This document shows positions 11,326 through 47,864 of a DNA stretch of 64,000 nucleotides, in pieces. Under the pieces are notes generated by a model. It searched no databases. It saw nothing but the letters and a program-made list of their open reading frames with translations, and had not been told where the DNA came from. Made by a program: the position numbers and the translations under genes. Within the stretch, counting starts at the first letter, position 1. Each line of letters begins with the position of its first letter. Source of the stretch: Marivivens donghaensis (GTDB lineage: Bacteria; Pseudomonadota; Alphaproteobacteria; Rhodobacterales; Rhodobacteraceae); assembly GCF_023541015.1 (NCBI RefSeq), contig NZ_JALNPR010000003.1, positions 62,001 to 126,000 of the forward strand. Direction: 5' to 3'.

Positions 11326-12267
11326 ATGGCACCCCGTAAAATCATCATCGACACCGACCCCGGCCAAGACGACGCAGTCGCCATTCTTTTGGCCCTTGGC
11401 AGCCCTGATGACATCGACCTACTCGGAATAACCGCCGTTGCAGGCAATGTGCCCCTGCCCCTCACGCAAAAAAACGCGCGGATCGTCTGTGAACTCGCAG
11501 GTCGTCCCAACGTTAAGGTCTATGCAGGCTGCGATGCACCGATGAAACGCAAACTGGTCACTGCAGAACACGTGCACGGCAAAACGGGACTCGACGGTCC
11601 GCAATTGCCTGATCCGACTATGCCACTACAGGACCAGCACGCCGTTGATTTCATTATCGAAACCCTGCGCAATGAACCCGAGGGCACGGTCACACTCTGC
11701 CCTATCGGACCACTAACGAATATCGCGACCGCTTTTGAACGCGCCCCTGATATCATCCCGCGCGTGCAGGAAATCGTCCTCATGGGCGGTGCCTATTTTG
11801 AGGTCGGCAACATCACCCCCGCCGCAGAGTTCAACATCTACGTCGACCCCGAAGCCGCCCAGATCGTGTTTCAATCGGGCGTCCCCCTCGTCGTCATGCC
11901 TTTGGACGTGACGCATAAGGCGCTGACCACGAAATCCCGCATCGATGCCTTCCGCAATATGGGCACCCATGTTGGCACGATGGTTGCGGAATGGACCGAC
12001 TTCTTTGAACGCTTCGATATGGAGAAATACGGCTCCGAAGGTGCGCCCCTCCACGACCCCTGCACCATCGCCTATCTGATTGATCCGCATCTGTTTTCTG
12101 GCCGTTACATCAACGTAGAGATTGAAACACAGTCCGAATTGACACTCGGCATGACCGTGGCTGATTGGTGGCGCGTGACAGGACGCAAACCCAATGCGTT
12201 GTTCATCGGTGATCTTCACGCCGAAGGCTTCTACCGTCTGTTGACAGATCGGATTTCACGCCTATGA
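11326..12267 (+). CDS. Nucleoside hydrolase (inosine-uridine preferring family)
   Basis: A 313-residue enzyme of the IunH family, which cleaves the N-glycosidic bond of ribonucleosides for salvage. The calcium-binding signature IIIDTDPGQDDAVAILLAL is at residues 5-23, and the second family signature LCPIGPLTNIATAFERAP and EIVLMGGAYFEVGNITP follow. The start at 11326 follows AAGAGGCAGTC; an upstream ATG at 11269 is open but adds an unconserved 19 residues. It overlaps the next gene by four bases (ATGA), so the two are probably translationally coupled. Substrate preference (purine or pyrimidine) cannot be assigned. Confidence 0.92.
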   Translation: MAPRKIIIDTDPGQDDAVAILLALGSPDDIDLLGITAVAGNVPLPLTQKNARIVCELAGRPNVKVYAGCDAPMKRKLVTAEHVHGKTGLDGPQLPDPTMPLQDQHAVDFIIETLRNEPEGTVTLCPIGPLTNIATAFERAPDIIPRVQEIVLMGGAYFEVGNITPAAEFNIYVDPEAAQIVFQSGVPLVVMPLDVTHKALTTKSRIDAFRNMGTHVGTMVAEWTDFFERFDMEKYGSEGAPLHDPCTIAYLIDPHLFSGRYINVEIETQSELTLGMTVADWWRVTGRKPNALFIGDLHAEGFYRLLTDRISRL

Positions 12268-12713
12268 CCACCTCGATCACGCTCGCGGGTCCCGACGCGC
12301 TCGACCGTGTGCTTTCGCTCGTCGAACGCAACCATGCCGAAATCGGTATCCCATCCGATGACGAAGGCCGCCGCCGCGCCATCACCCCATTGCTGAACGG
12401 GTCGCCCCACGGTGCGATCTGGCTCATCGGACCGCAACGTGCGCCCTTAGGCTATGTGCTGGTCACGTTCGGTTGGTCGATTGCTCTAGGCGGGATGGAA
12501 GGTTGGGTCGATGAGACGTTTATTCGTCAGTCCGTGCGCCGCCGTGGCATCGGAACCGAGGTGCTCCATTCCGTCGCGGTGGCCTTGGGTCAAGGTGGCG
12601 TCAAAGCCCTGCATGCTCGTCTTCCTTCGCCAGATCCATCGCTGATCGCCTTTTGCGAACGGGTTGGTTTCCGCCAGCGCGACGGGCTGTTGGTGCTGAC
12701 CGATACGCTCTGA
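12264..12713 (+). CDS. GNAT family N-acetyltransferase
   Basis: A 149-residue single GNAT domain. The acetyl-CoA pyrophosphate-binding loop is seen as RQSVRRRGIGTEVLHSVA near residues 89-106, preceded by the GWVDETFI strand and followed by HARLP and the CERVGF motif of the last helix. The acceptor is unknown. The start overlaps the stop of the nucleoside hydrolase, which hints at a shared role in nucleoside or small-molecule metabolism, but this is only positional evidence. Confidence 0.85.
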   Translation: MTTSITLAGPDALDRVLSLVERNHAEIGIPSDDEGRRRAITPLLNGSPHGAIWLIGPQRAPLGYVLVTFGWSIALGGMEGWVDETFIRQSVRRRGIGTEVLHSVAVALGQGGVKALHARLPSPDPSLIAFCERVGFRQRDGLLVLTDTL

Positions 12714-12749
12714 TCTGGTTATCGCAGCCCCGCGCCCCATATAGATATC

Positions 12750-14120
12750 ATGCAACTTTTCGCCTTTGATAACAGCTACACACGGCTCCCCGCGCAGCTT
12801 TACACCCGCCAAACCGCGACACCCGTTCGTGCGCCTCAGTTCTTTGCCCTGAACGACGCGCTCGCCCGCGATCTTGGCGCCGACCCCAAAGCCCTCCGCG
12901 CCAACGTCGATGTCTTTGCGGGCAACACGGTGCCCGATGGTGCCGACCCGATCGCCCAAGCCTACGGCGGCCACCAATTCGGCCAATGGAACCCAGGGCT
13001 TGGTGACGGTCGCGCCCTCCTCTTGGGCGAGGTTATCTGCGACAAAGGTCGCTTTGACCTCCAACTCAAAGGATCAGGCCGCAGCCCCTATTCCCGCGCT
13101 GGCGATGGCCGCGCTGGCCTCGGCCCTGTGATCCGCGAATATCTTGTGTCAGAGGCAATGAACGCGCTTGGCGTGCCGACCACCCGCGCTCTGGCCGCTG
13201 TGACCACAGGCGAACAAATCCTCCGCGAAGGCCCCGTCCCCGGCGCGATCCTCACCCGCGTCGCCTCTAGCCATATCCGCGTTGGCACCTTCCAGCTCCA
13301 AGCCTTTCGCGGCGACGAACAGGCGTTACGCGCACTCTACGATCACACCCTTGCCCGCCATTTCCCCACCGCCGAAACCGTCGAGGATGTCGTCGCCCAA
13401 ATGATGGAGCGTCAGGCGGACCTCATCGCCCGCTGGGCGGCGCTCGGCTTTATCCATGGGGTGATGAATACCGACAATATGACCGTATCTGGCGAAACCA
13501 TCGACTACGGTCCTTGCACGTTTATGGACGCCTACCACCCCGCGACAGTGCTCTCGTCCATCGACCGCATGGGGCGCTATGCCTATGCCAACCAGCCGCA
13601 TATCGCGATCTGGAACATCGCCCAATTCGCATCGAGCCTCGTCCCCATGGCCCCCGATCAAGACGCCACTGTCGAGCGTTTGAACGCTATGATGGGCAAC
13701 TTCGCTGGCCTCTACCGCAGCGCATGGATTCGCCATTTCGCCCCGAAACTCGGCCTTACCGCATCGGATCAGGCAGAACCCCTCGCCCAACGGTTCCTCA
13801 AAATGATGGAGGATACGGGCGCGGACTTCACCCTCACTTTCGCCAACCTCGACGAGCCACTCGACCATAAGGACTATGCCGATTGGCGCACCGATTGGCG
13901 CGCAACAAAACCCGACCTCGCCCTCGCCGCGCAAACGAACCCGCAGGTCATCCCACGCCTCCACCGCATCGAAGAAGTCATTCGCGAAGCAACAGAGGGC
14001 AACCGCGCGCCCTTTGACGCGATGCTCGCTGCCGTCACCGCACCTTTCACTGAAAACCCCGATTTCGCTCGTGCCCCCGAACCGCATGAACGGGTCACGG
14101 CCACCTTCTGCGGCACCTAA
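12750..14120 (+). CDS. selO: SelO/YdiU protein AMPylator (pseudokinase fold)
   Basis: A 456-residue SelO-family protein. Family members transfer AMP from ATP to Ser, Thr or Tyr of target proteins and are linked to redox homeostasis. Conserved blocks are AQAYGGHQFGQWNPGLGDGRA, LQLKGSGRSPYSRAGDGRA with the ATP-binding lysine, and the catalytic-loop-like FIHGVMNTDNMTVSGETIDYGP with the metal-binding Asn/Asp residues. The C-terminus ends TFCGT: a single cysteine stands where some homologues carry selenocysteine. It is slightly shorter than the ~480-residue E. coli protein. A dispersed repeat follows 5 bases after the stop. Confidence 0.93.
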   Translation: MQLFAFDNSYTRLPAQLYTRQTATPVRAPQFFALNDALARDLGADPKALRANVDVFAGNTVPDGADPIAQAYGGHQFGQWNPGLGDGRALLLGEVICDKGRFDLQLKGSGRSPYSRAGDGRAGLGPVIREYLVSEAMNALGVPTTRALAAVTTGEQILREGPVPGAILTRVASSHIRVGTFQLQAFRGDEQALRALYDHTLARHFPTAETVEDVVAQMMERQADLIARWAALGFIHGVMNTDNMTVSGETIDYGPCTFMDAYHPATVLSSIDRMGRYAYANQPHIAIWNIAQFASSLVPMAPDQDATVERLNAMMGNFAGLYRSAWIRHFAPKLGLTASDQAEPLAQRFLKMMEDTGADFTLTFANLDEPLDHKDYADWRTDWRATKPDLALAAQTNPQVIPRLHRIEEVIREATEGNRAPFDAMLAAVTAPFTENPDFARAPEPHERVTATFCGT

Positions 14121-14124
14121 GGCT

Positions 14125-14168
14125 CCTTTGTGCCCCAAATATCCCGGGGGTTTGGGGGCAGCGCCCCC
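14125..14168 (+). repeat. Dispersed GC-rich intergenic repeat, copy 1
   Basis: CCTTTGTGC...AAATATCCCGGGGG, then GGGGGC AGC GCCCCC, a 6-bp stem. One of six related copies in the window. It lies between the convergent ends of selO and urtE and could end transcription from both sides. Confidence 0.85.
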
Positions 14169-14174
14169 AGCGCA

Positions 14175-14870
14175 TCAAATCGAGACCGCCGCCAGCAACT
14201 GCTTCCGCGCCAAACTCGCTTTCCCCTCGTTCAGCACGACATCGCCACGGTTGAGCGCATAGAATTCGTCCGCGAGGTTAAAGGCGAAGTCGAAATACTG
14301 TTCGACCAGAACCACTGCAATCTCGCCCTCATCGCGCAACTGTGCAATCACGCGGCCGATCTGCTGAATGATATTGGGCTGAATGCCTTCGGTTGGCTCG
14401 TCCAAGAGCAACACGCGAGGTCGTGTGATCAGTGCACGCGCGATTGCCAACTGCTGTTGCTGCCCGCCAGAGAGGTCGCCGCCTCGTCGATGCAGGAACT
14501 CTTTGAGGATCGGGAAAAGCTGAAAAATCTTATCGGGCACGCCGCGTTCAGACCGATCAAGGCAGGCAAACCCGCTTTCCAGATTTTCCTGCACGGTCAT
14601 CAGCGGGAAAACTTCGCGGCCCTGCGGGACATAGGCGATCCCTGCCCGTGCGGCACCAAATGCGGTCAGATGCGGCAGGTCTTTTCCGTCTAACCGAATA
14701 GTGCCTTTGTCATAGGGATGACGCCCAGCAATCGCCTTGAGGAGCGAGGTTTTTCCAACGCCATTGGTCCCCATGACCGCTGTCACCTGCCCCGGCTTTG
14801 CGGTCATGGTGATGCCGTTCAAAATCTGGCTCTGCCCGTATTTCAGTGTGAGATTTTCAATTTCGAGCAT
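14175..14870 (-). CDS. urtE: Urea ABC transporter, ATP-binding protein UrtE
   Basis: A 231-residue LivF-type ATPase. Walker A is VMGTNGVGKTSLLK (around residue 32-45), the signature is LSGGQQQQLAIARAL and Walker B RVLLLDEPTEGIQPN. It is assigned to urea rather than branched-chain amino acids because it ends a five-gene urtABCDE order whose first gene is a UrtA-type binding protein and whose UrtB has the long N-terminal extension. The ATG at 14870 starts one base before the urtD stop region; an earlier in-frame start at 14894 would overlap urtD. Confidence 0.93.
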   Translation of the reverse strand: MLEIENLTLKYGQSQILNGITMTAKPGQVTAVMGTNGVGKTSLLKAIAGRHPYDKGTIRLDGKDLPHLTAFGAARAGIAYVPQGREVFPLMTVQENLESGFACLDRSERGVPDKIFQLFPILKEFLHRRGGDLSGGQQQQLAIARALITRPRVLLLDEPTEGIQPNIIQQIGRVIAQLRDEGEIAVVLVEQYFDFAFNLADEFYALNRGDVVLNEGKASLARKQLLAAVSI

Positions 14871-14871
14871 C

Positions 14872-15615
14872 TTAGCGTCCCAGATAAACTTCAATCACGT
14901 CAGGGTTTTGGGTCACGTGATCGAGCGAGCCTTCGGCCAAAACCGATCCTTCGTGCAGCACGGTGACCTTGCAGTTCAGGCGGCGCACGAACTCCATATC
15001 ATGTTCGACAACCACAACGGCGCGGGTCTTCGCCGCCCGAACAAGGAGGTCGGTCGTTTGTTCCCGCTCCGCAGGCGTCATCCCTGCCGCGGGTTCATCG
15101 ACCAAGAGCAAACGTGGATCTTGGGCCAAGAGCATCCCGATTTCCAACCATTGCTTTTGACCGTGTGACAGCTCTCCTGCAACACGGGTTAGCTGATCAC
15201 TCAGCCCGATTTCTGCGGCGAGCGCTTCGATCCGCGCAGCCCCATTTGCCGTCTTGCGATAGAACAGCACATCAAACGGTCCGCGTTTGTTTTTCAGCGC
15301 CATCGCGAGGTTTTCGCGAACGGTCTGCGCTTCAAACACCGTCGGCTTTTGGAACTTACGACCGATGCCCGCGCGGGCGATCTGGCTTTCGCTCATGCCT
15401 AAGAGGCTGATGGATTTTTCGCCCCAGATGACCTTGCCCTCGTCGGGTTTGGTCTTGCCTGTGATGATGTCCATAAAGGTGGTTTTACCCGCCCCATTCG
15501 GCCCGATCACCGCCCGCAATTCAGGCTCTGCAATCGCGATGGAAAGGTTATTGATCGCGCGAAATCCGTCAAAGGTGACCGAAACGCCCGAAACTTCGAG
15601 GAGACGTTTGCTCAT
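14872..15615 (-). CDS. urtD: Urea ABC transporter, ATP-binding protein UrtD
   Basis: A 247-residue LivG-type ATPase. Walker A is VIGPNGAGKTTFMDIITGKT, the signature LSHGQKQWLEIGMLLAQ carries the SHGQ variant usual for UrtD, and Walker B is RLLLVDEPAAGMTP. The start at 15615 overlaps the urtC stop by four bases (ATGA), which supports this start over the in-frame ATG at 15642. It works as a heterodimer with UrtE. Confidence 0.94.
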   Translation of the reverse strand: MSKRLLEVSGVSVTFDGFRAINNLSIAIAEPELRAVIGPNGAGKTTFMDIITGKTKPDEGKVIWGEKSISLLGMSESQIARAGIGRKFQKPTVFEAQTVRENLAMALKNKRGPFDVLFYRKTANGAARIEALAAEIGLSDQLTRVAGELSHGQKQWLEIGMLLAQDPRLLLVDEPAAGMTPAEREQTTDLLVRAAKTRAVVVVEHDMEFVRRLNCKVTVLHEGSVLAEGSLDHVTQNPDVIEVYLGR

Positions 15616-16829
15616 TCCGGCTTTCCTTCTTCTGCGCGCCATGCCCCCTCGGATGGGCCATAGTCAGAGTTGCGTTTGACCGCGACGAAATCGAACAGAC
15701 CGCCGATACCTTGGGGGAAGAACAGCGTGACCACGACAAAGGACAGGCCCAGCAGGACGAGCCACCAGTCGGTCCAGACGATTTTGTAGAAACCGAGGTT
15801 GATCGCAGGTGCGCTGCCGCCAGTGAACCACGACGACAAGAGCGAGACGAGCGTTGCGCCGATCACAGCACCATAAAGCCGTCCGCGCCCACCAATCGCC
15901 ACCCAAACCGCGAGGTAGATGGACGCAATCGGTGCGATTTCTGCGGGGTTAATGATGCCTGCTTGCGGGTAATAGAGGGCGCCAGCAATGCCCGCGACCA
16001 TCGCCGTGATCGTAAAGACGAATAATTTATACGATTCAACGTGATACCCAAGAAACCTCACACGCGCTTCATCATCCCGAATGGCCCGAATGACGCTGCC
16101 CATTTTGCCTGATGTGACAAAGGCAAAGAGGAGATAACCGAGGCCAAGCGCGACCGCTGAAGCCCAAAAGAACCAGATCGACACGTCGTCTTGGGATGCG
16201 GAAACACCGGGAATGTTTTGCAGACCCGAGAGGCCGTTATTCCCGCGCAAACCGCTGTCGTTTTGGAACAGATAGAGCGACAGCGCGAGGGTCATCGCTT
16301 GGGTCAGGATGGAGAGATAGACGCCTGTAACGCGGCTGCGGAAGGCTAGCCAGCCAAAGACAAGTGCAAGCAATCCGGGAACGATCAGGATCGCCAAAAG
16401 CTGGAGCGGTAGCGAATGCGCAAAGCTCCAGATCAGAGGGAAATCGCTGCTGCCAACGACGCCGAAAATCTGAGTGCCGATGGCGTCAGAGACCTCTTGC
16501 GGCGTTGCAGGGAGCGGTTGGTTCGCCAGAGACCCCGCGACGATTTCTTCGGTGCGGGCATACATGAGCCACATGCCAATCGCGTATCCCCCGATACCAA
16601 AGAACGCAAAGTGACCGAGGCTGAGGATGCCGCAATAGCCCCAGACCACATCCATCGCGATGGCGATCAGACAGAGGCAGAGCGTTTTGCCCAGTGTTTT
16701 CACGAAGGATGTCGAGATCAGGCCATAGCCCGTTGCCTCTGCCATCACGGTCACCGCGAGGGTGAAAAGTGACAGGACCAAGAGGAACACAAGGACCGAA
16801 CGATTTGTTGCAAGGAATGATTTTGTCAT
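15612..16829 (-). CDS. urtC: Urea ABC transporter, permease UrtC
   Basis: A 405-residue LivM-type inner-membrane permease with about ten hydrophobic segments. The early GILSLGHFAFFGIGGYAIGM segment and FLGYHVESYKLFVFTITAMV region are family hallmarks. A longer loop near residues 95-125 is typical of UrtC compared with LivM. It follows urtB by three bases and overlaps urtD. Confidence 0.94.
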   Translation of the reverse strand: MTKSFLATNRSVLVFLLVLSLFTLAVTVMAEATGYGLISTSFVKTLGKTLCLCLIAIAMDVVWGYCGILSLGHFAFFGIGGYAIGMWLMYARTEEIVAGSLANQPLPATPQEVSDAIGTQIFGVVGSSDFPLIWSFAHSLPLQLLAILIVPGLLALVFGWLAFRSRVTGVYLSILTQAMTLALSLYLFQNDSGLRGNNGLSGLQNIPGVSASQDDVSIWFFWASAVALGLGYLLFAFVTSGKMGSVIRAIRDDEARVRFLGYHVESYKLFVFTITAMVAGIAGALYYPQAGIINPAEIAPIASIYLAVWVAIGGRGRLYGAVIGATLVSLLSSWFTGGSAPAINLGFYKIVWTDWWLVLLGLSFVVVTLFFPQGIGGLFDFVAVKRNSDYGPSEGAWRAEEGKPE

Positions 16830-16832
16830 GGC

Positions 16833-18770
16833 TCAGTTCCCTGCCGCACGGCCCTTTAGGGCGACGATGCCTTTGGGACGGAATTGGATGAAAATGATGA
16901 TAAAGAGGATCATGTAGGTCTGCGCGGCGAGCGTGTTCGACGGGTTGAGGAACTCGATCCCTTTTTGCAAGAAGCCAATCAGCGATGCCCCTGCAAGCGT
17001 GCCCCAGACGTTCCCGACGCCACCGACCACAACGGTCATGAAGGACTGAACGATGTAGTCGGCGCCCATTTCAGACGTGACTTTGGCGTAGAGGCCGATG
17101 GCAACGCCTGCGATCCCCGCAATCCCTGAGCCAAGCCCGAAGGTGAGCATATTGATGCGATCTGGGTTAATGCCCATCGAAGCTGCCATCCCTGGGTTCT
17201 GGGTCACTGCGCGGACCTCTAGCCCCAGACGGGTCTTTTTCAGGATAAACAAGATCAGGCAGAGGAACATCACGGCGAGCACAAAAATCGCGATGCGGAT
17301 GTAGCTGATCGCCACCACGTCGTTGAACACCAGCGCACCGTCCAACCACGACGGCGAGGTCAGCGGGCGGGCCTGCGTGCCAAAGATGTTCTTTGCGATT
17401 TGTTGCAGCGCAATAGAAATACCAAATGTCGCGAGGAGCGTTTCCAGCGGGCGTTTGTAGAGGTGGCGAATGACTAACCGCTCCATCGCGACGCCGGCCG
17501 CAAACGTGACGATAAAGGCAACGGGAAGTGCGACGATAATCGACACGGTGTAATCAGGGATCACCTGCTGGATCACGTAGCCCGTATAGGCGCCCATCAT
17601 GATGAACTCTCCATGGGCCATATTGATCACGCCCATCACACCGAACGTCACAGCAAGGCCAATCGCAGCTAGGAAATATATTGACGCCAAAGAGATCGCA
17701 TCGAGCGCGAGGTCAGCAGTCTGCATGGCACCCACCTTTAGCTCGATCTGTTTGATTGCAGCAGCGGCGGCATCGGTGACGAACTGATCCGCCTCATCGT
17801 ATTGGGTGTAGAACACATGAGCCGCAACGGCAGCTTCGCGATCAGCCATCGGGACGAAAGGCGCGGCAAGCCCCGTATCGACTAGCCCCTGATAGGCACG
17901 AACGCGCTCTGCAGGATCAGACATGGCCGCAACTGGCACACCGGCGATCTGGTCATCCACGATATTCGCGATCAGGGCGGATTTCAGGTCGTCTTCGGTC
18001 ACTGTGGGCTGCGCCAGTCCAGCGGCGGCAAGCTCTGCATAGGCGGTATTCACATCGAAATCAGGGCCGACCTCGCGGATTGCGGCGATGTTTGCGCCTT
18101 CGGGCAACGCGGCCGCAACACCCGTGGTCGTAGTCAGCGTTTGGTTCATCACGGCGCGAACGTCGACGCTCACATCGGACGATAGCGCCTCAATCGCCGC
18201 AACACGATCCTCGCTCAACGGAGCAAAGCGAGCGGTAAGCATCATCAACAGACGTTCTTTGCGGGCCTGCAAACCAGTGTCAGGCTCATCGGCGATCGAC
18301 GCGGCAAGAGGCGCAAGCTGTTCGGCAGAGCCATCGCGGCTGATCGCATCCAATGCAGCGGCACGACGATCATATTCAGGATCGAGCAGTTGATATTGAA
18401 CCAAGGCAGAGCCGATCACACCACGCACACCTGCGTTCGGTTTGATCTGCGCCATGACAGATTTGGGCGCAGTGCCTACGGCTTCACCCGTTGAAAGGTC
18501 GATCAACGTGATCGGATCAGAGCCTTCGACATAGTAAAACAGGCCAGTCTCTTCGTTCTGCCAAACGTTCTTTTCCTGCCACGCCTGAAGAAACGCGGGC
18601 ACTTCGGGCAGATCGCTGTCGATCAACGCGGTAATCGCTTGATCCACTGTGCGGCGAGACGGTTTGGCAATGTCATCGGAATAGGTTTGGAGGACAGACT
18701 GTAGGTCCTGAGCGGCAGCGGCAGCAGCCAAAAAGAAGATGGACAGAGCCATCACAACGGCGCGAAGCAT
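16833..18770 (-). CDS. urtB: Urea ABC transporter, permease UrtB with long N-terminal domain
   Basis: A 645-residue protein. Residues 1-20 are a signal-like hydrophobic stretch (LSIFFLAAAAAAQDLQ). Residues ~20-350 form a soluble, probably periplasmic, helical domain, a known feature of UrtB in proteobacteria. The rest is a LivH-type permease with about eight membrane segments, including GVMGVINMAHGEFIMMGAYTGY and the C-terminal GVGNVWGTLAGASLIGFLQKG. It pairs with UrtC to form the channel. A strong hairpin separates it from urtA. Confidence 0.94.
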   Translation of the reverse strand: MLRAVVMALSIFFLAAAAAAQDLQSVLQTYSDDIAKPSRRTVDQAITALIDSDLPEVPAFLQAWQEKNVWQNEETGLFYYVEGSDPITLIDLSTGEAVGTAPKSVMAQIKPNAGVRGVIGSALVQYQLLDPEYDRRAAALDAISRDGSAEQLAPLAASIADEPDTGLQARKERLLMMLTARFAPLSEDRVAAIEALSSDVSVDVRAVMNQTLTTTTGVAAALPEGANIAAIREVGPDFDVNTAYAELAAAGLAQPTVTEDDLKSALIANIVDDQIAGVPVAAMSDPAERVRAYQGLVDTGLAAPFVPMADREAAVAAHVFYTQYDEADQFVTDAAAAAIKQIELKVGAMQTADLALDAISLASIYFLAAIGLAVTFGVMGVINMAHGEFIMMGAYTGYVIQQVIPDYTVSIIVALPVAFIVTFAAGVAMERLVIRHLYKRPLETLLATFGISIALQQIAKNIFGTQARPLTSPSWLDGALVFNDVVAISYIRIAIFVLAVMFLCLILFILKKTRLGLEVRAVTQNPGMAASMGINPDRINMLTFGLGSGIAGIAGVAIGLYAKVTSEMGADYIVQSFMTVVVGGVGNVWGTLAGASLIGFLQKGIEFLNPSNTLAAQTYMILFIIIFIQFRPKGIVALKGRAAGN

Positions 18771-18810
18771 CAGCGCGTTCCTTATGGGGTAGTCTGGGGA
18801 GGGAAGGTTC

Positions 18811-18835
18811 GGGGTGGAGGACGCGCCCCCACCCC
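18811..18835 (-). other. Intercistronic hairpin between urtA and urtB
   Basis: On the minus strand GGGGTGGGGG (18826-18835) pairs with CCTCCACCCC (18811-18820) around a 5-base loop, 10 base pairs with one G-U. There is no T-run after it. Such structures after the binding-protein gene of ABC operons often protect its message and raise its level above the permease genes. Confidence 0.65.
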
Positions 18836-18848
18836 AAATTTCAAAACC

Positions 18849-20138
18849 TTAGTAGTTCGAGGTCAACTGAACGCAGGTCTGAGTTTCGGTGTTATACATA
18901 CCGCATTTCAGGTCGATCCAGTCGGATTCCAGAACAGCGGATTCCGGCAGGAAGTCGGTCCATGCGTCACCAGCCACTTCGGTGGTTTGGCTGATGATGT
19001 CGAACTGGCCGTCCGCCTGAATTTCACCGATCAGAACTGGTTTGGTCAGGTGGTGGTTCGGCAACATGACAGCAGTTCCGCCTGTCAGGTTGGTGAACTC
19101 TTGGCCCGGAAGCGCTTCGATGATGGTGTCAACGTCGGTGGTGCCTGCCGCGGTTACTGCGTTCACCCACATGTTAAAGCCGATGTAGTGCGCTTCCATC
19201 GGGTCGTTCGTCACGCGCGCATCGTCACCGATAAAGCCATGCCATGCGTCGATGAAGGCCGCGTTTTCTGCGGTATCAGCCGACATGAAGTAGTTCCAAG
19301 CTGCCAAGTGGCCAACGAGGTTGGTGGTATCGAGGCCCGAGAGTTCTTCTTCACCGACGGAGAAGGCAACAACTGGGATGTCTTCGGCAGAGACGCCTTG
19401 GGCTGCGAGTTCTTTATAGAAGCCGATGTTTGCATCGCCGTTGATGGTCGAAATCACGCCAACCGATTTACCGTCAGCGCCCAATGCGACAACGTCCGAC
19501 ACGATGGTTGCCCAGTCCGAGTGACCGAACGGGGTGTAGTTCACAAAGATGTCTTCAGCGGCGATGCCTTTGGACTGAAGATAGCTTTCGAGAATGTTGT
19601 TGGTGGTGCGTGGGTAGACATAGTCGGTGCCCAGAAGCGCGAATTTCTCAACACCAAGCTCTTCGAGGAAGTAGTCAACCGCAGGGATCGCCTGCTGGTT
19701 CGGAGCAGCGCCAGTGTAGAAAACGTTGCGCGAGGATTCTTCGCCTTCGTATTGAACGGGGTAGAACAGCAGGCCGTTCAATTCTTCAAGCACGGGGAGA
19801 ACCGATTTACGCGAGACCGAGGTCCAGTTGCCGAAAATCACATCCACGTCGTGAACGGTCAGCAGTTCACGTGCCTTTTCCGCAAAGAGCGGCCAGTCGG
19901 ACGCAGGGTCGACCACGACGGCTTCGATTTCACAGCCCAGCAGACCGCCCTTTGCGTTCTGCTCTGCGATCAGCATCAACATGGTGTCTTTGAGAGTGGT
20001 TTCAGAAATGGCCATCGTGCCAGAGAGGGAGTGCAGCACGCCAACCTTGATCGGGTCAGCACATTCGGCCAGAGCGGAGCCTGCACCTGCGATCAGAGCA
20101 GCGGAGGAAAGTGCGGGCAGCATGATTTTTTTAAACAT
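18849..20138 (-). CDS. urtA: Urea ABC transporter, periplasmic binding protein UrtA
   Basis: A 429-residue type I periplasmic binding protein. Residues 1 to ~24 form a Sec signal peptide (KKIMLPALSSAALIAGAGSALA then ECADP). The mature part begins with IKVGVLHSLSGTMAISET and contains KSVLPVLEELNGLLFYPVQY and YVYPRTTNNILESYLQ, which distinguish UrtA/AmiC-type proteins from LivJ. It captures urea in the periplasm and hands it to UrtBC. The start follows a GGGGA. No urease genes are adjacent in this window. Confidence 0.95.
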   Translation of the reverse strand: MFKKIMLPALSSAALIAGAGSALAECADPIKVGVLHSLSGTMAISETTLKDTMLMLIAEQNAKGGLLGCEIEAVVVDPASDWPLFAEKARELLTVHDVDVIFGNWTSVSRKSVLPVLEELNGLLFYPVQYEGEESSRNVFYTGAAPNQQAIPAVDYFLEELGVEKFALLGTDYVYPRTTNNILESYLQSKGIAAEDIFVNYTPFGHSDWATIVSDVVALGADGKSVGVISTINGDANIGFYKELAAQGVSAEDIPVVAFSVGEEELSGLDTTNLVGHLAAWNYFMSADTAENAAFIDAWHGFIGDDARVTNDPMEAHYIGFNMWVNAVTAAGTTDVDTIIEALPGQEFTNLTGGTAVMLPNHHLTKPVLIGEIQADGQFDIISQTTEVAGDAWTDFLPESAVLESDWIDLKCGMYNTETQTCVQLTSNY

Positions 20139-20572
20139 TTAAAGTGTCCCCTGTTTGAGACCCATCCGCGGCCCGTGACCAGTGGTCAAATCGGGTCAAA
20201 ACGCGTATATCAAGGCCTCAGCTTTGTTGCTGGTGTCGCGCGGGGTCGGTTTTCTGCCAGGATTGCGTCCCCGTGCGGCGATTTCGAGCGGCGTTATCCG
20301 TCGCCCGAGAAAGAGGAGATGCTGCAACGCGGCACATCACAATTCTCATCAAATCCAGAAAATCAAAATTCAACGCAGGTGGTCACTTTTTAATCACAAA
20401 TGAGTGCCTTGGTTAATTTTTAATCAGAACAAACGTCAACAATCGATCCACTTCACAGGCGAATGGCCCGAAAAACATAGTTAGTCACGCCTTAACTGCC
20501 TCATCTCTGCCAAGATTGAGGTATACACTTACCTAACGTCACCCTTGTGGATTTGAGTAAAGCGAGGTCGCC
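20139..20572. other. Intergenic region upstream of urtA
   Basis: About 430 bases without a gene I can support. AT-rich in its right half. It contains a 13-base palindrome at 20176-20188, two copies of TTTTTAATCA (near 20384 and 20416) and a short inverted repeat AGGTA-N6-TACCT at 20519-20534. It should hold the urtA promoter on the minus strand and a promoter for the small frame at 20573. I found no clear sigma-54 promoter. Confidence 0.5.
20176..20188. promoter_or_regulatory. Palindrome TGACCAGTGGTCA upstream of urtA
   Basis: A perfect 6-1-6 dyad located 38-50 bases before the urtA ATG. A third GGTCA half-site follows at the end of GTGGTCAAATCGGGTCAAA, giving a direct repeat of GGTCAAA. Possible operator for the urt operon; the binding protein is unknown. 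Confidence 0.4.
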
Positions 20573-20692
20573 ATGCCAGCCGATCAACTGAAAAAAGCAC
20601 CGACACAGAACAAGCCGCAGACAGAAACAAACAGACAAATACCTGTCGCCGCCGAGACACCCTACCTCATTCGCGACTTTGCGAGCCTTTAA
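20573..20692 (+). CDS. Possible small protein, 39 residues
   Basis: An open frame starting MPADQLKKAPTQNKPQTE and ending YLIRDFASL. It has a good ribosome-binding site (GCGAGGTCGCC before the ATG). The composition is polar and rich in Gln, Lys and Pro with a short hydrophobic end, which suggests a disordered peptide. It lies alone in an otherwise long non-coding stretch. A weak hairpin with two short T tracts (20709-20734) follows. No homologue is recognised and it could be a chance frame. Confidence 0.4.
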   Translation: MPADQLKKAPTQNKPQTETNRQIPVAAETPYLIRDFASL

Positions 20693-20866
20693 GACGCGAT
20701 CATAAATGAACAACCCTTGGGTGTTTTCCGTTTTGAGGCACATCATGTGGGGTGTTAGCCTTATGGATACTGCAGCTTATCCCAATGCAGCGTTTCAGCA
20801 CCGATCCGGATGACATACCCCTGAACTTAGGGAAGACCGACAACCATAAAGAGACACCTAGGCCCA

Positions 20867-23443
20867 ATGGCACTTAAAACCACCTTCGCGATTTCCAGCA
20901 ATAAGACGCCAGATGACCTGCGCGACTCCCTGCTGTTTCGCGATCTGGATGGGTCTCAACTTCTCAGATTGCGCGCTAAAATTGCGAGCCACCCGTCTCG
21001 ACATACCCTTATCTACGTCGCATTTACATCGATTTGGGTCATGGGGCTGGCTTTGGGGGCTGGGGCAACAGATCTATCGAAAATCGCAATTTATTTTGTG
21101 CCACACACGGCGCTTTTCGTGTTGGTGCTAGGAGTGCTCATCTATCCCATCCGTATGATATACTGGCCAATTCTTGCCTTCATCGGCATTTATCTGGCTC
21201 AAGCAATCATACCTACCTACATCCTGCCGCTTGACGAAACATCGGACAGTATCGCTCGCATGTTCTGGGCTGGTTTAGGGGTGAACTTATTTATCGGTGG
21301 CCTCGTCGGGTTCTTGTTGCGACTGGTGCTGAACTTCCTCAACAACCGCCTTGCCCCCTACACGGTCGACCTTACGATTTCAGTTCTGACTGGTGTGGTG
21401 TTCTCCATCGTTTCGGTTACGACAATCTCAACGCTCACCAGCGTCTTTGCGTCGTCTTTCCCTGAGGCAGTGGCAGCACTTTCACTCGATAACGAGTTCC
21501 TGCTCCAAGCAGCGATCCGTTGTGGCTATGGCGGCATTGTCGTGTCCACCTTCTTTATTGGGATGATCCAATTCCCACGGCCATCGGATGTCCTCTGGGC
21601 AACGCCATTTGTCTTGAGCTTTGGTGTGCTCGCCACATTGGGACAGTATGGGGTCCAACTTCATGTCGCCCTAGACGCTATCGCGCTCTGTGCGATTTTT
21701 GCTGTTGTTCTACCGATCCGATTGGTTGTGCCGACCCTGACCACGGGGATGCTGATCTACGCATCTATGACTGGCGCGATTGTGACGCCTCCGACGATCA
21801 CCTCGCAATCCGACCTTGTCATAGAAGTTTACGCGGTCATCGCCCTCGGCATCATCATTTTCGTACTCGGCCTACGCAGCCATGGGCTGCACCTGCAAGA
21901 TCAACAAGTCAGCTCGCTACGACGTCTAAATACTGTTCGGAACTATGCGGGCGTTGGTGTCTTTGCCGTTGATCTAACATCGCGCATGGTTTCGGTCGAT
22001 CCCGTAACGCAGCGCATGCTAGGCGTTCCGCAAAGTTTCGATATTGCATCGATGATGCGGAAATTTGGCGACCATGAACAAACCGAACTGCGGCGCATGA
22101 TGTTCCAACGTCCGGGCGAGACGACGACCCTCCTCGCCCGCCTACGCGAGGCCCCAGGCAGCAATCACCGTCGCGTTATTCGCCTGTTCCTTTGGTACGA
22201 ACGCAGCTTTGACAACCTACCCGTCGTCTATGGCCTCGTGGTAGATGTGACAGGCGAACACCTGCAGGAACGCGCGCTCAAGGAAACCTTGGCCGAATTG
22301 TCGATCCGTCAAGATCAGCAAAAGCAGATGTTCTCGATCATCAGCCACGAATTGCGGACACCTGCGTCGGTGATTTCGATGCTTATCGACGACCTTAACG
22401 ACGACGAAGCGGACCAAGAGCACCTCGCCAGACGCCTGCGCGAGGCAACGGACCAACTTCTCGGCGTTTTGACCGACATGCGTCAGGCCGTGAACCCAGA
22501 AAAGAACCTGCCCATCAACCCGGTCCCGTTCGTCCCAGCCGACCTTGCCGAATCGATCCGCAATACGTTCGAAATGCAGGCTCAGGCGAGCGGCATCACG
22601 ATCAGACTTCGGTTTGGCGAAGGCGCGAACGAGATGGTCTTGGCCGATAGCGTTCGGATCAAACAAATCCTCGGCAACCTTATTCGCAACGCGATCATTC
22701 ACTCGCGCTGCTCTGCAATTACTGTGACCTATCGGTCGTCGATTGGCGATAATCTGAACGACCGCACAGGGGTTTGGTCGATCACGGACAACGGCATTGG
22801 GATCGCTGCTGAAGAAGTCGAACGCCTCTTCCAACCGTTCCAGCGTGGCGGCGAAGATGCCCGCAACCGCGCGGACGGCTCGGGCCTTGGCCTCTACATC
22901 GTGCGGACAACTGCGCAGCTCTTGGGTGGCAGCGTGACCTACTTCCCCGCCCCCGAAGGCGGCGCGGGCTATCACGTTCGGATCGCTGAACCACTCGCCT
23001 CGGCAGAGGATCTACGTCAGGTCGCCCATATGGACGACGACACGGTCGACTTTGGCTCGATGTATGTTCTTTTGGCAGAAGACAACGCTCTGGTCGCCGA
23101 GGTTACCAGCGCGCGCCTTCGCAAATTCATGGGCCGTGTAGAGGTGGTTGGCTCTGGCCGCGAGGCGCTCGACCTCATCGCCCAAGATCCGCCTGATGTA
23201 GTCGTCACAGACCTCTTTATGCCCGAAATGTCGGGCGATGAACTGACACGCACCCTGCGCGCCAATGGCTTTACCAAACCGATCATCGGCCTCACCGCTG
23301 CTGTCGTTGGCGATGACATGCGTCAGTTCGAAAAGGCAGGCGCGTCGACCGTCATGACCAAACCGCTCGACGATACAGCACTGATGCGGTTCCTCCGCAA
23401 ACAAAGCGCGGAACAGGATGACGAGTCACCTCGGGCAGAGTAA
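20867..23443 (+). CDS. Membrane-bound hybrid histidine kinase with receiver domain
   Basis: An 858-residue sensor kinase. Residues ~45-345 hold about nine or ten hydrophobic segments resembling a MASE-type membrane sensor. Residues ~360-470 look like a PAS-type domain (YAGVGVFAVDLTSRMVSVDP). The HisKA domain has the phospho-accepting His494 in FSIISHELRTPAS, and the ATPase domain has NLIRNAIIHS, DNGIGIAAEE and GSGLGLYIVRTTA. A C-terminal receiver domain has the phospho-acceptor Asp782 in VVVTDLFMPEMSG. No separate response regulator or histidine phosphotransfer gene is adjacent, so the output is unknown. The ATG at 20867 has a poor Shine-Dalgarno but is the earliest in frame. Confidence 0.9.
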   Translation: MALKTTFAISSNKTPDDLRDSLLFRDLDGSQLLRLRAKIASHPSRHTLIYVAFTSIWVMGLALGAGATDLSKIAIYFVPHTALFVLVLGVLIYPIRMIYWPILAFIGIYLAQAIIPTYILPLDETSDSIARMFWAGLGVNLFIGGLVGFLLRLVLNFLNNRLAPYTVDLTISVLTGVVFSIVSVTTISTLTSVFASSFPEAVAALSLDNEFLLQAAIRCGYGGIVVSTFFIGMIQFPRPSDVLWATPFVLSFGVLATLGQYGVQLHVALDAIALCAIFAVVLPIRLVVPTLTTGMLIYASMTGAIVTPPTITSQSDLVIEVYAVIALGIIIFVLGLRSHGLHLQDQQVSSLRRLNTVRNYAGVGVFAVDLTSRMVSVDPVTQRMLGVPQSFDIASMMRKFGDHEQTELRRMMFQRPGETTTLLARLREAPGSNHRRVIRLFLWYERSFDNLPVVYGLVVDVTGEHLQERALKETLAELSIRQDQQKQMFSIISHELRTPASVISMLIDDLNDDEADQEHLARRLREATDQLLGVLTDMRQAVNPEKNLPINPVPFVPADLAESIRNTFEMQAQASGITIRLRFGEGANEMVLADSVRIKQILGNLIRNAIIHSRCSAITVTYRSSIGDNLNDRTGVWSITDNGIGIAAEEVERLFQPFQRGGEDARNRADGSGLGLYIVRTTAQLLGGSVTYFPAPEGGAGYHVRIAEPLASAEDLRQVAHMDDDTVDFGSMYVLLAEDNALVAEVTSARLRKFMGRVEVVGSGREALDLIAQDPPDVVVTDLFMPEMSGDELTRTLRANGFTKPIIGLTAAVVGDDMRQFEKAGASTVMTKPLDDTALMRFLRKQSAEQDDESPRAE

Positions 23444-23452
23444 CCTGCAGGT

Positions 23453-23773
23453 ATGACATCCCTTCGTACAATTTCGGGCATTGGCCCGGCGACTGAAACG
23501 GACATGATCCGCGCAGGCATACCTGATGCCGAAACCCTAAGGGCGCTCGGTGCACATGATGCCTATGCACGGATGATCGCCAAAGGCACCCGCCCCCACT
23601 TCATTGGCTACTATGCTCTTCACATGGCCCTCCAAGGTCGCCCATGGAACGACTGCAAAGGCGCTGAAAAAGACGCCTTGCGGACCCGCTTTGACGCACT
23701 CCTCGCCTCTGATACCCCAGACGGCCCATCAAACAACCTCGCCCGCTTTTTGTCAGATATGGGCCTCGCCTGA
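23453..23773 (+). CDS. TfoX C-terminal-domain protein
   Basis: A 106-residue protein consisting only of the helix-hairpin-helix-like TfoX/Sxy C-terminal domain (TISGIGPATETDMIRAGI and then AHDAYARMIAKG, and GYYALHMALQGRPWND). In gammaproteobacteria the full-length TfoX co-activates competence genes with CRP; single-domain versions like this have no established role. It starts 9 bases after the histidine kinase stop, so the two are probably co-transcribed. A dispersed repeat follows the stop. Confidence 0.82.
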   Translation: MTSLRTISGIGPATETDMIRAGIPDAETLRALGAHDAYARMIAKGTRPHFIGYYALHMALQGRPWNDCKGAEKDALRTRFDALLASDTPDGPSNNLARFLSDMGLA

Positions 23774-23778
23774 TCCTG

Positions 23779-23822
23779 CCTTTGTGCCGCAAATATCCCG
23801 GGGGTTTGGGGGCAGCGCCCCC
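23779..23822 (+). repeat. Dispersed GC-rich intergenic repeat, copy 2
   Basis: The same 44-base element as copy 1 with only a few differences, placed 5 bases after the TfoX-domain gene and before the ndk terminator, again between convergent genes. Confidence 0.85.
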
Positions 23823-23828
23823 ATAAAC

Positions 23829-23855
23829 GAACAAAGCCCGCACAACCGTGCGGGC
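23829..23855 (-). terminator. Intrinsic terminator of ndk
   Basis: On the minus strand an 8-bp stem GCCCGCAC/GTGCGGGC with a 4-base loop is followed by TTTGTTCG. It lies 31 bases past the ndk stop. Confidence 0.75.
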
Positions 23856-23886
23856 CTTGCCGTAAATCAAATCTGAACAGTGACGA

Positions 23887-24309: not shown

Positions 24310-24432
24310 GATAGCCTCACTTGCGTCGGCCCCATCAGGGGCGGGTTAAGATTTGGCGCTGCCCTAACATGTGTTAGCGCACAAGAAAAGCCGTGATTGA
24401 CCGCGCCTCTTAGGTCAGGCAATGACGCATCT

Positions 24433-26292: not shown

Positions 26293-26299
26293 CCCCCTG

Positions 26300-26344
26300 C
26301 CTTTGTGCTTAAAATATCCCGGGGGTGCAGGGGGCAGCGCCCCC
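26300..26344 (+). repeat. Dispersed GC-rich intergenic repeat, copy 3
   Basis: Same element, with the stem extended to 9 bp (GCAGGGGGC AGC GCCCCCTGC, reaching 26347). It lies 7 bases after the ABC-F stop and before marC. Confidence 0.85.
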
Positions 26345-26398
26345 TGCCCTTGAAGCTTTGCCCTTTGTCCATTTGATCAAACCCGTTAGAACAGCTCT

Positions 26399-27019: not shown

Positions 27020-27036
27020 GACCTATCTATTGGTCT

Positions 27037-28067: not shown

Positions 28068-28094
28068 TTTTGCCTCCGCTAGCATTTGTCTTTT

Positions 28095-28565: not shown

Positions 28566-28569
28566 GGAC

Positions 28570-30036: not shown

Positions 30037-30172
30037 TTGGTGAACTCCTGAAAGCTGTCTTTCGGCAATAGGTAGCTTGCCTTGTGGTGAATGACCAGAA
30101 TACGGTTCAATCCCCCCAACAAATCGGTTAGCGTCTTGGCGATAAGGAATAACTGGCATCCGGGGGGACGCA

Positions 30173-36672: not shown

Positions 36673-36676
36673 TCTG

Positions 36677-36731
36677 CCTTTGTGCCTGAAAATATCCCGG
36701 GGGGCCGCAACGCGGCGGGGGCAGAGCCCCC
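36677..36731 (+). repeat. Dispersed GC-rich intergenic repeat, copy 4
   Basis: The element as elsewhere but with an insert GCCGCAACGCGGC, itself a small hairpin, between the CCCGGGG block and the GGGGGC AGA GCCCCC stem. It starts 5 bases after the pdxA stop. Confidence 0.82.
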
Positions 36732-42454: not shown

Positions 42455-42498
42455 AGGGGGTCCATGCGCGAAGTCGGGTCAACCGTCAAGCCTAGCGA

Positions 42499-44568: not shown

Positions 44569-44609
44569 AATGCAGGTATTGACCCGAGCGTTTTAGTCAG
44601 GTTTAACGA

Positions 44610-45640: not shown

Positions 45641-45645
45641 AACAT

Positions 45646-45689
45646 GGGGGCTCTGCCCCCACACCCCCGGGATATTTCAGGCACAAAGG
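45646..45689 (-). repeat. Dispersed GC-rich intergenic repeat, copy 5 (inverted)
   Basis: The same element on the opposite strand: GGGGGC TCT GCCCCC, then CCCCCGGGATATTT and GCACAAAGG. It starts 6 bases after the iron-binding protein stop. Confidence 0.85.
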
Positions 45690-45771
45690 CATGGGCGGCG
45701 ACGCCTATGCTTTTGAGGTCGTGACAGCCTGTCGCATGTCAAAATTATAATGTATATGTCACATGCGGATT

Positions 45772-45963
45772 ATGACTGAACATGCACACAACCCCGAAAA
45801 CTTTGGCACTATCGTAAAACCACTGCTTGGCCTTGTGGTTTTGCTGGTGTTGCTTGCCATCTCGATCAAGATTTTTGGTATCGCAGGACTGATGGTTCCC
45901 GTGCTCGCACTGGTCCCCACCATCTACGTTATTTTGATCTGGATTTCCCTCGGCAAGTCCTAA
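45772..45963 (+). CDS. Small membrane protein, function unknown
   Basis: A 63-residue protein starting MTEHAHNPENFGTIVKPLLG with two hydrophobic segments (about residues 18-35 and 39-58) and little else. An in-frame ATG 9 bases upstream (45763) is equally possible; neither has a strong Shine-Dalgarno. No family recognised. The frame ends 4 bases inside the end of the convergent ABC-F gene. Upstream is AT-rich sequence suited to a promoter (ATAATGTATA). Confidence 0.6.
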   Translation: MTEHAHNPENFGTIVKPLLGLVVLLVLLAISIKIFGIAGLMVPVLALVPTIYVILIWISLGKS

Positions 45964-47768
45964 GCTTCTGATTTTTCCATCAAAAGCATCCACTCTTCTT
46001 CGGCAGCGGCAAGCGCATCTTGTCGCTGCACGAGGGCCTCAGTCGCCTTTTGGAACTTCACTGGCTGTTTGGTAAACAGCTCAGGATCTGCCATCAGCTC
46101 CTCTAGTTTCGCGATCTCTGCGGTGATTTTATCGATCACAGCAGGCAGTGCTTCGAGGCGGTGTTTTTCGGTAAACGACAGACCGTTTTTACGAGTATCC
46201 GATTTCGGTTTTTCTGCCGGCTTTGCGGTTTCAGCGGGTTTTGCTGTCTCTTGAATAACGGTGCCGCGTTGGTTCAAGTAGTCCGTCCAGCCGCCCGCAT
46301 AAACGGTCGCGTTCCCGTTACCTTCCATGGCAATCGTCGTCGTCGCAACGCGGTCGAGGAAATCACGGTCGTGGCTGACGAGGATGACGGTGCCATCGTA
46401 ATCGTCTAGGATTTCCTGCAAGAGATCGAGCGTCTCAATGTCCAAATCGTTCGTAGGTTCGTCGAGGACCAAGAGGTTCGACGGTTTCGCCATGAGCTTA
46501 GCCAACAAGAGACGCGCCTTTTCACCGCCAGACAGGGATTTGACGGGGGCGCGGGCCTGCGCTTCGTTAAAGAGGAAGTCTTTGAGGTAGGCGACAACAT
46601 GTTTGGGCACGCCGCGCACCATGACCTGATCCGCACGCCCACCGACACGCATTTCAGGATCACCCGTGAGGCTATCCCAGAGCGACATCTCTGGGTCGAG
46701 TTGCGCACGCGTCTGGTCAAAAACGGCAACCTCAAGGTTGGTGCCCAGCTTCACACGGCCGGCATCAGGGTCGACCTGACCCAGCATCATCTTGATCACG
46801 CTGGTTTTTCCGACCCCGTTCGGCCCGACAAAGGCAACACGATCGCCGCGTTGAATGGTGATCGTCAGGCCTTTCACGATTTGCTTATCGCCAAAGGACT
46901 TGGTCAGATCTTCAACCTCAATCACCTTTTTACCAGAGGTCGGCCCACTCTCGAGCGTGAGCGCCGCCGTCCCCTGCCGCTTGATCATTGAAGCCCGCTC
47001 CGCACGCAAATCCTGTAGGGCACGAACACGCCCTTGGTTCCGCTTGCGACGCGCAGAAATACCTTCGACCGCCCAACGTGCCTCGGCTTTGATCTTGCGA
47101 TCCATCTTGTGCTTGGCGGTTTCTTCTTCGTCCCAAACCTTGTCGCGCCATGCCTCGAACCCGTCAAAGCCCGTTTCCTGACGACGTACTTCGCCACGGT
47201 CGATCCACAGCGTTGCCCGCGTCAAAGCCCTCAAAAAAGCGCGGTCGTGGGAAATCAGAACATAGGCCGCCTTGGTCGACTTCAGTTCATTCTCCAACCA
47301 TTGCACCGCCTCAATATCGAGGTGGTTGGTCGGTTCGTCCAAGAGCATCAATTCAGGCGCTTCAGCCATCAACTTGGCCAAGGCCGCGCGGCGGCGTTCA
47401 CCACCTGATGCGGTCGCAACATCGCGGGACGGATCAAACTTGAGACCATCCGCAACCATCGCAACGCGGTAGGCTTCGCTCGGATCGAGGCCGCTAGCGG
47501 CATAATCGCCCAAGGTAGCATACCCCTCCATTGTCGGGTCCTGCTCCATATAGCCGACCGTGACACCGGGCGGCACAATGCGCATTCCATGGTCGGCTTC
47601 CACCAACCCAGCCATCACTTTCATCAGAGTCGATTTACCCGACCCATTACGCCCAACCAGCGCAACGCGATCGCCGCCCTGCACAACAGCAGAGAGGTCT
47701 GAAAATACGGGGTCCCCACCAAAGGTCAGGGAAATGTCGGATAACTGGAGTAAAGGTGCGCGTGCCAT
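45960..47768 (-). CDS. uup: ABC-F family ATPase, Uup type
   Basis: A 602-residue soluble protein with two ABC domains. Walker A motifs are ALVGRNGSGKSTLMK and AFVGPNGVGKTSVIK, and the signatures are ASGGERRRAALAKL and LSGGEKARLLLAKL. The linker and the C-terminal coiled-coil region (KHRLEALPAVIDKITAEIAK and following) match Uup, a ribosome-associated protein linked to ribosome assembly and transposon excision. It is the second ABC-F paralogue in the window after the YheS-type gene at 24433. Confidence 0.93.
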   Translation of the reverse strand: MARAPLLQLSDISLTFGGDPVFSDLSAVVQGGDRVALVGRNGSGKSTLMKVMAGLVEADHGMRIVPPGVTVGYMEQDPTMEGYATLGDYAASGLDPSEAYRVAMVADGLKFDPSRDVATASGGERRRAALAKLMAEAPELMLLDEPTNHLDIEAVQWLENELKSTKAAYVLISHDRAFLRALTRATLWIDRGEVRRQETGFDGFEAWRDKVWDEEETAKHKMDRKIKAEARWAVEGISARRKRNQGRVRALQDLRAERASMIKRQGTAALTLESGPTSGKKVIEVEDLTKSFGDKQIVKGLTITIQRGDRVAFVGPNGVGKTSVIKMMLGQVDPDAGRVKLGTNLEVAVFDQTRAQLDPEMSLWDSLTGDPEMRVGGRADQVMVRGVPKHVVAYLKDFLFNEAQARAPVKSLSGGEKARLLLAKLMAKPSNLLVLDEPTNDLDIETLDLLQEILDDYDGTVILVSHDRDFLDRVATTTIAMEGNGNATVYAGGWTDYLNQRGTVIQETAKPAETAKPAEKPKSDTRKNGLSFTEKHRLEALPAVIDKITAEIAKLEELMADPELFTKQPVKFQKATEALVQRQDALAAAEEEWMLLMEKSEA

Positions 47769-47814
47769 GTCGTGCAGCTAATCTGCCCCATCAAAACACG
47801 CAAGGGCTCGCCTG

Positions 47815-47858
47815 CCTTTGTGCTGTAAATATCCCGGGGGTCTGGGGGCAGAGCCCCC
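47815..47858 (+). repeat. Dispersed GC-rich intergenic repeat, copy 6
   Basis: Almost the same 44 bases as copy 1, with AGA instead of AGC in the loop of the GGGGGC/GCCCCC stem. It lies 6 bases past the coaD stop and before uup. Confidence 0.85.
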
Positions 47859-47864
47859 AGCGTG

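What the first reader, a model, noticed from the sequence alone, without database searches (positions are those of the whole stretch)
14125..14168. Six-member dispersed GC-rich repeat family at gene ends
Copies at 14125, 23779, 26300, 36677, 45646 (inverted) and 47815 share CCTTTGTGC-N3-4-AAATATCCCGGGGG followed by a GGGGGC/GCCCCC hairpin. All lie 5-7 bases after a stop codon. The fixed distance to gene ends, the two parts (a conserved AT block and a hairpin) and one copy with an inserted second hairpin suggest a mobile or selected REP-like element, possibly a terminator or mRNA 3'-end protector. I recall similar sequences in related genomes but cannot cite a description.
Basis: seen in the sequence. 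Interest (0 to 1): 0.55.

Follow-up and report, generated by a model that had tools for sequence, protein, structure and literature searches.

The report
Repeated hairpin tags beside gene ends
A short two-part DNA repeat with a GC hairpin is scattered at gene ends across a family of marine and soil bacteria; its sequence is conserved, its direction does not follow the neighbouring gene, and two inverted copies in this window mark the ends of a DNA segment that was flipped in a related species.

Summary
In detail: six copies, far above chance. The genome (a Marivivens relative, 2.84 Mb) has 26 copies. Anatomy: TGCCTTTGTGC – 3 free bases – AAATATCCCGGGGG – linker or second hairpin (13 of 26) – GGGGGC-NNN-GCCCCC. 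Core matches occur in 94 of 149 Rhodobacteraceae genomes sampled (one control hit) and in 1 of 285 other-family Alphaproteobacteria.

It is REP-like, but not a known REP. The own genome has no REP-type (Y1) transposase, and the copies have no T-tract. 18 of 26 copies abut a stop codon (null 10%), equally in sense and antisense, so 'after a stop' is only half right; four lie between divergent genes. In two species pairs the block, core and hairpin diverge 1–4% while the spacer diverges 28%, like four-fold sites: sequence selection with spacer length kept. Orientation follows replication strand moderately (20 of 26 here on the C-rich strand) rather than gene strand. Close pairs are always head-to-head (11 of 11). 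Window 45645–47859, bounded by two inverted copies, is inverted in the nearest relative.

Best reading: a selected DNA-level site that also serves as recombination homology; its binding factor is unknown. An mRNA 3′-end role remains the main rival.

The parts
14123..14168 (+). Copy 1: 5' block 14123-14133, spacer 14134-14136, core 14137-14150, linker TTT 14151-14153, hairpin 14154-14168. Lies between two convergent genes (SelO-like, stop 14120; ABC transporter gene, stop at 14175).
   Evidence: present at the same place in G297 and beside the right-hand gene in G295
23777..23822 (+). Copy 2: core 23791-23804, hairpin 23808-23822, after the stop (23773) of a TfoX_C-domain gene; a separate hairpin flanked by A and T lies just downstream.
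26298..26344 (+). Copy 3: core 26312-26325, linker TGCA, hairpin 26330-26344, after the stop (26292) of an ABC-F-like gene. At the same gene end G299 and G295 have head-to-head pairs and G298 has none.
36675..36731 (+). Copy 4: 4-base spacer, core 36690-36703, second hairpin GCCGCAACGCGGC 36704-36716, terminal hairpin 36717-36731, after the stop (36672) of a PdxA-like gene. Partly decayed in G297.
45646..45691 (-). Copy 5: hairpin 45646-45660 lies 5 nt after the stop (45640) of a + strand solute-binding-protein gene, so it is antisense to that gene; core 45664-45677, 5' block 45681-45691. Left end of the invertible segment.
47813..47858 (+). Copy 6: 5' block 47813-47823, core 47827-47840, hairpin 47844-47858, 6 nt from the stop (47865) of a - strand cytidylyltransferase-like gene. 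Right end of the invertible segment.
45645..47859 (.). Segment with an ABC-F-like gene (45960-47768) bounded exactly by the inverted copies 5 and 6; inverted in G297 relative to this genome. Five other genus members keep the gene in this genome's orientation relative to the cluster on its left.

Best explanation
This is a Rhodobacteraceae-wide, REP-like dispersed DNA site of about 46-75 bp with a two-part sequence motif (pyrimidine-rich 5' block, three free bases, AAATATCCCGGGGG) and one or two GC hairpins. Shown here: copies stay at the same extragenic places between species, the motif and hairpin are conserved while the spacer drifts, orientation is indifferent to the adjacent gene but biased relative to replication strand, close pairs are always head-to-head, and one pair of inverted copies bounds an inversion. 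Inferred: it works as DNA. A protein that reads both halves of the motif at fixed spacing, probably together with the extruded or single-stranded hairpin, binds next to stop codons and above all between convergent genes, much as E. coli REP/BIME sites bind gyrase and nucleoid proteins (recalled). That would relieve or insulate the supercoils that meet there. As a side effect the copies give homology for recombination between dispersed places. The protein is unknown and binding is not shown.
For: Orientation is indifferent to genes: 7 sense-only, 7 antisense-only, 4 both among 18 copies within 15 nt of a stop; tandem contexts 6 and 6. Orientation against GC skew: own strand C-rich in 20 of 26 (own) and 27 of 37 (G295), 19 of 26 (G051) and 9 of 12 (G117), 85 of 123 in named loci. 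Sequence constraint: own vs G297, 17 orthologous copies: 5' block 0.021, core 0.036, hairpin 0.027, spacer 0.288; four-fold sites 0.282, intergenic 0.069. HF1 vs G295, 17 copies: 0.016, 0.014, 0.036, 0.275; four-fold 0.208, intergenic 0.068. Homogenisation alone cannot explain a free spacer between two fixed blocks. Gene ends: 18 of 26 within 15 nt of a stop, null 10%, p 8e-13; convergent 10 of 26 against 14% of junctions, p 0.0017. Inversion between copies 5 and 6 with block edges at the element edges.
Against: No binding protein is known or identified. The replication-strand bias is moderate (about 70-77%), weak in some genera (MAG-99 7 of 13), uses local GC skew as a stand-in for the replication strand, and the species share inherited copies, so the counts are not independent. 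Within the genus, antisense-abutting copies tend to outnumber sense ones (6 sense vs 11 antisense in G295; 3 vs 11 in HF1), which an RNA role could explain. Four own copies lie between divergent genes, away from any stop. G298, same genus, has no exact core 13-mer, so the site is dispensable at least there. Convergent enrichment could reflect safe places rather than function.
Confidence: 0.45

Rival explanations
1. RNA 3'-end element: the GC hairpin, transcribed just after the stop codon in either orientation, blocks 3'-5' exonucleases or stalls ribosomes, as described for REPs within 15 nt of a stop.
For: 18 of 26 copies abut a stop. Antisense copies put the hairpin 0-15 nt from the stop, the distance at which E. 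coli REPs are reported to act (PMC12306157, passages). One copy lies between gap and aldolase genes on the same strand in C. sphaeroides. In convergent pairs such as copy 1 nothing else fills the gap.
Against: The asymmetric two-part motif is kept equally in sense and antisense copies, where the mRNA would carry opposite strands. In sense copies the hairpin starts about 31 nt or more after the stop. Several copies lie beyond a separate hairpin followed by T-runs (L007, L008). Orientation bias to the replication strand is not expected. Single copies fold only marginally better than shuffles (z -1.9 to +0.7 for six).
Confidence: 0.28
2. Non-autonomous mobile element: a REPIN/MITE-like unit spread by an unidentified transposase acting on single-stranded DNA at forks; present copies are mostly fixed remnants.
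For: Head-to-head pairs in 11 of 11 close pairs; orientation bias to the replication strand, as known for IS200/IS605 (PMC6006769, abstract start in the listing); different occupancy at the same gene ends in G295, G299, G298 and G117.
Against: No Y1 transposase in the own genome; PF01797 in 8 of 86 genomes with the core and 7 of 63 without. All 17 own copies that could be aligned on both sides with the element retained sit at the same place in G297; the single loss leaves part of the 5' block. Old copies are not decaying like neutral remnants.
Confidence: 0.17
3. Transcription terminator, possibly two-way, between convergent genes.
For: Position between convergent genes; GC hairpin.
Against: No T-run follows the hairpin on either strand in the window copies; the terminator scan of 12001-32000 lists none of the three copies there; a copy lies between same-strand cbb genes.
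Confidence: 0.07

Closest known systems
REP elements and BIMEs/REPINs (GTAG- and CGTC-tagged repeats)
   Same: Short extragenic palindrome, tens of copies, often near stop codons, head-to-head dimers (as CGTC repeats, PMC3733652 section 6).
   Different: No GTAG or CGTC tag beside the stem, no RAYT, a long two-part sequence motif with a free spacer, orientation bias to replication strand, one core across a whole family.
IS200/IS605-type single-strand transposition
   Same: Hairpins and a bias to one replication strand.
   Different: No Y1 transposase in the genome; copies stay in place between species.
KOPS/AIMS polar chromosome motifs (recalled)
   Same: Polarity relative to replication.
   Different: 26 copies only, beside gene ends, with hairpins; the G-rich strand is on the opposite strand from KOPS; terminus enrichment seen in G117 only.
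Intrinsic terminators
   Same: GC hairpin after stops.
   Different: No T-tract; both orientations; asymmetric conserved motif.

Membership tests
REP (GTAG/CGTC) | multi-copy extragenic palindrome | tested here: met
   26 of 26 own copies overlap no called gene; 94 of 149 family genomes have core matches
REP (GTAG/CGTC) | GTAG or CGTC tag at one end of the stem | tested here: not met
   none beside the terminal stem in the 26 own copies, read by eye
REP (GTAG/CGTC) | head-to-head dimers | tested here: met
   11 of 11 pairs within 200 bp; most copies are single
RAYT/TnpA-REP system | Y1 transposase in the genome | tested here: not met
   PF01797 in 15 of 149 genomes, none in own; 8 of 86 with core, 7 of 63 without
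MITE/IS-derived element | target-site duplication at a filled/empty site | tested here: inconclusive
   one filled/empty pair (L021 vs G297): remnant CTGCCTTT, deletion-like
Intrinsic terminator | T-run after the hairpin | tested here: not met
Known RNA family (Rfam 15) | covariance model match | tested here: not met
   no gathering match in the window; best weak hit 15 bits against 58.6
KOPS/AIMS | orientation polar to replication | tested here: inconclusive
   20 of 26, 27 of 37, 19 of 26, 9 of 12 on the C-rich strand; 85 of 123 in named loci
Gyrase-binding BIME | binding by gyrase or IHF | not testable with these tools
   needs binding assays

The most novel reading that the evidence does not exclude
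A family-wide, transposase-free class of REP-like sites that reads as a two-part protein-binding DNA motif plus hairpin, set by replication strand rather than gene strand, and that both marks gene ends and provides the crossover points of small inversions in Rhodobacteraceae chromosomes.
Probability: 0.27. Interest if true: 0.75.

Novelty: new variant of a known kind. Interest (0 to 1): 0.55.

Why it matters
Why REP-like repeats are kept is an old question. Here a repeat is shared by many genera, has no candidate RAYT transposase in the genome at hand, and has a built-in control: a free three-base spacer between two conserved blocks, which separates selection from mere recent copying. Copies occur in Cereibacter sphaeroides, a genetically tractable species, so the RNA and DNA explanations can be told apart directly. 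The inversion inside this window shows that the copies can also reshape gene order.

Tried and rejected
RAYT/Y1 transposase: rejected. Terminator: rejected for lack of T-runs. Known RNA family: none. Phage origin: no convincing match; four weak hits (E 0.09) in one phage type. Print record: the motif strings were not found in the PMC library (the two papers listed are, by title, about Staphylococcus aureus and cattle); topic searches gave no paper on this repeat by title or abstract start. PMC3733652 and PMC12306157 do not name Rhodobacter, Roseobacter, Paracoccus or Ruegeria. Terminus enrichment: 12 of 12 copies lie in the terminus half in G117, but by eye G051 shows none; not claimed. Stop-adjacency is weaker outside the genus: about half of 30 single-genus loci have a stop within roughly 15 nt, and few of the Pacificoceanicola loci do. 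L026, L027 and L029 were dropped from the 29 near-matches because they lack the 5' block and hairpin. In some searches and 84 copies without both flanks, without a fetched ortholog or without the element were left out (own: 9 of 26 left out: 6 not fetched, 2 at the inversion, 1 lost).

Gene calls come from my own hexamer caller, not a standard program; it misplaces starts, and some small genes may be missed.

Full report
OBSERVATION. The core AAATATCCCGGGGG occurs six times in the window (shuffle mean 0.35), and the GGGGGCNNNGCCCCC hairpin occurs at the same six places and nowhere else. In the genome (2.84 Mb, 11 contigs) there are 17 exact cores and 29 places with up to 2 mismatches. Of these, 26 carry the 5' block and hairpin; three are chance matches in other sequence. 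Eight of the 26 lie within 78 kb of contig C5 that includes the window.

ANATOMY. TGCCTTTGTGC, three free bases (four in window copy 4), AAATATCCCGGGGG, then either a short linker (13 of 26) or a second hairpin (13 of 26), then GGGGGC-AGC or AGA-GCCCCC in most copies. In 30 loci, one from each of 30 other genomes of the family, the 5' block becomes in most a pyrimidine-rich stretch of the type CTTC-A/T-T-C/T-T-T/G-G. A second subfamily with core AAATACCTCGGGG and 5' block TTCATTCTGA lives in the same genus.

DISTRIBUTION. AAATAYCYCGGGGG occurs in 94 of 149 genomes of the family with one reversed-pattern control hit; AAATATCCCGGGG in 86 of 149. The strict Marivivens-type form TTTGTGCNNNAAATATCCCGGGGG is in 5 of 295. 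A class-wide draw of 289 genomes gave the own genome and one single hit elsewhere (285 of the 289 were from other families). In the genus, 6 of 7 genomes have the core; G298 has none. By contig names and lengths G296 is Marivivens donghaensis HF1 and G297 is Paradonghicola geojensis FJ12.

POSITION. With my gene caller, 18 of 26 own copies lie within 15 nt of a stop codon: 7 only sense, 7 only antisense, 4 both. Random intergenic insertion points give 10% (p 8e-13). Convergent junctions hold 10 of 26 against 14% of junctions (p 0.0017). Tandem contexts split 6 and 6, and 4 copies are between divergent genes. So the copies mark gene ends but not in a fixed direction. In public annotation a C. 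sphaeroides copy lies between gap and the fructose-bisphosphate aldolase gene of a cbb cluster on one strand. Outside the genus stop-adjacency is weaker.

CONSERVATION. Own vs G297, 17 orthologous copies: flanks 0.07-0.09, 5' block 0.021, spacer 0.288, core 0.036, insert 0.041, hairpin 0.027; four-fold sites 0.282, second codon positions 0.009, intergenic 0.069. HF1 vs G295, 17 copies: flanks 0.04-0.09, 5' block 0.016, spacer 0.275, core 0.014, insert 0.044, hairpin 0.036; four-fold 0.208, intergenic 0.068. The spacer drifts like a four-fold site between two fixed blocks. Recent spread or homogenisation would have spared the spacer as well; selection on sequence with fixed spacing explains it. 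Low average intergenic divergence is a caveat for calling the flanks neutral.

TURNOVER. Between own and G297, of the 18 copies whose two flanks could be aligned, 17 are kept and one (L021) is lost leaving CTGCCTTT, a deletion-like trace. Across the genus the same gene ends differ: at window copy 3, G299 has a head-to-head pair, G295 a head-to-head pair with one member of the second subfamily, and G298 none. At one place G295 and G296 share both flanks but carry different core and insert cassettes. Of close pairs (up to 200 bp) in all loci held, 11 of 11 are head-to-head.

STRAND. In G117 GC skew is positive in the pieces sampled up to 1.2 Mb and negative in those from 1.42 Mb on; 9 of 12 elements have their motif on the C-rich strand. 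The same holds for 20 of 26 own copies and 27 of 37 in G295, 19 of 26 in G051 and 85 of 123 in named loci, though single groups range from 7 of 13 to 7 of 7. Copies shared by descent are counted more than once. The bias is not explained by gene strand in the genus, since sense and antisense contexts are balanced there (own and G295).

INVERSION. The aligned blocks with G297 are window 42001-45691 (one strand), 45645-47859 (opposite strand) and 47813-52000 (first strand). The overlaps are the two elements, 45646-45691 and 47813-47858, to within a base. In G298, G117, G299, G295 and G296 the ABC-F gene keeps this genome's orientation relative to the cluster on its left, so the flip most likely happened on the G297 side; the block to the right of copy 6 lies elsewhere in all five. 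Recombination between inverted copies is the simplest reading.

WHAT IT IS NOT. No Y1 transposase in the own genome and no association across 149 genomes; no T-run and no terminator call for the three copies in the scanned stretch; no Rfam family.

CONCLUSION. A REP-like site, new as a family as far as the searches here show (in an open-access library only), most likely acting as DNA. Shown: sequence, places, conservation, orientation counts, inversion. Inferred: a bound protein, a topological or insulating role, recombination as a side effect. The main rival is an RNA hairpin at mRNA 3' ends; REPs within 15 nt of a stop are reported to stall ribosomes (PMC12306157, passages).

Noticed in passing
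window 45645-47859; G297 C10 1264615-1266829: ABC-F segment inverted between two species with both ends inside inverted copies of the repeat.
   Followed up: yes
window copy 6 (47813-47858): The gene block to its right lies elsewhere in five genus members. G295 has a copy beside the ABC-F gene start and G117 one beside the cytidylyltransferase block, so this junction may be a fusion through the repeat.
   Followed up: partly
L274 2312 (- strand) against L287: Same flanks, but the core and insert are exchanged between the two subfamilies (AAATATCCC type and AAATACCTC type), as in gene conversion.
   Followed up: partly
L294 1501-1538 (Cereibacter sphaeroides CP031752.1): A copy between gap and the aldolase gene of a cbb cluster, antisense to both, hairpin end about 9 nt from the gap stop.
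   Followed up: partly
G000 C5 31-110 kb: Eight of 26 genomic copies cluster in 78 kb, part of which is this window; reason unknown.
   Followed up: no
inserts of L004, L010, L021, L022 and relatives: One insert type is flanked by TGAA and AGA around a variable stem, possibly tandem G-A pairs; the same insert types recur in different genera.
   Followed up: no
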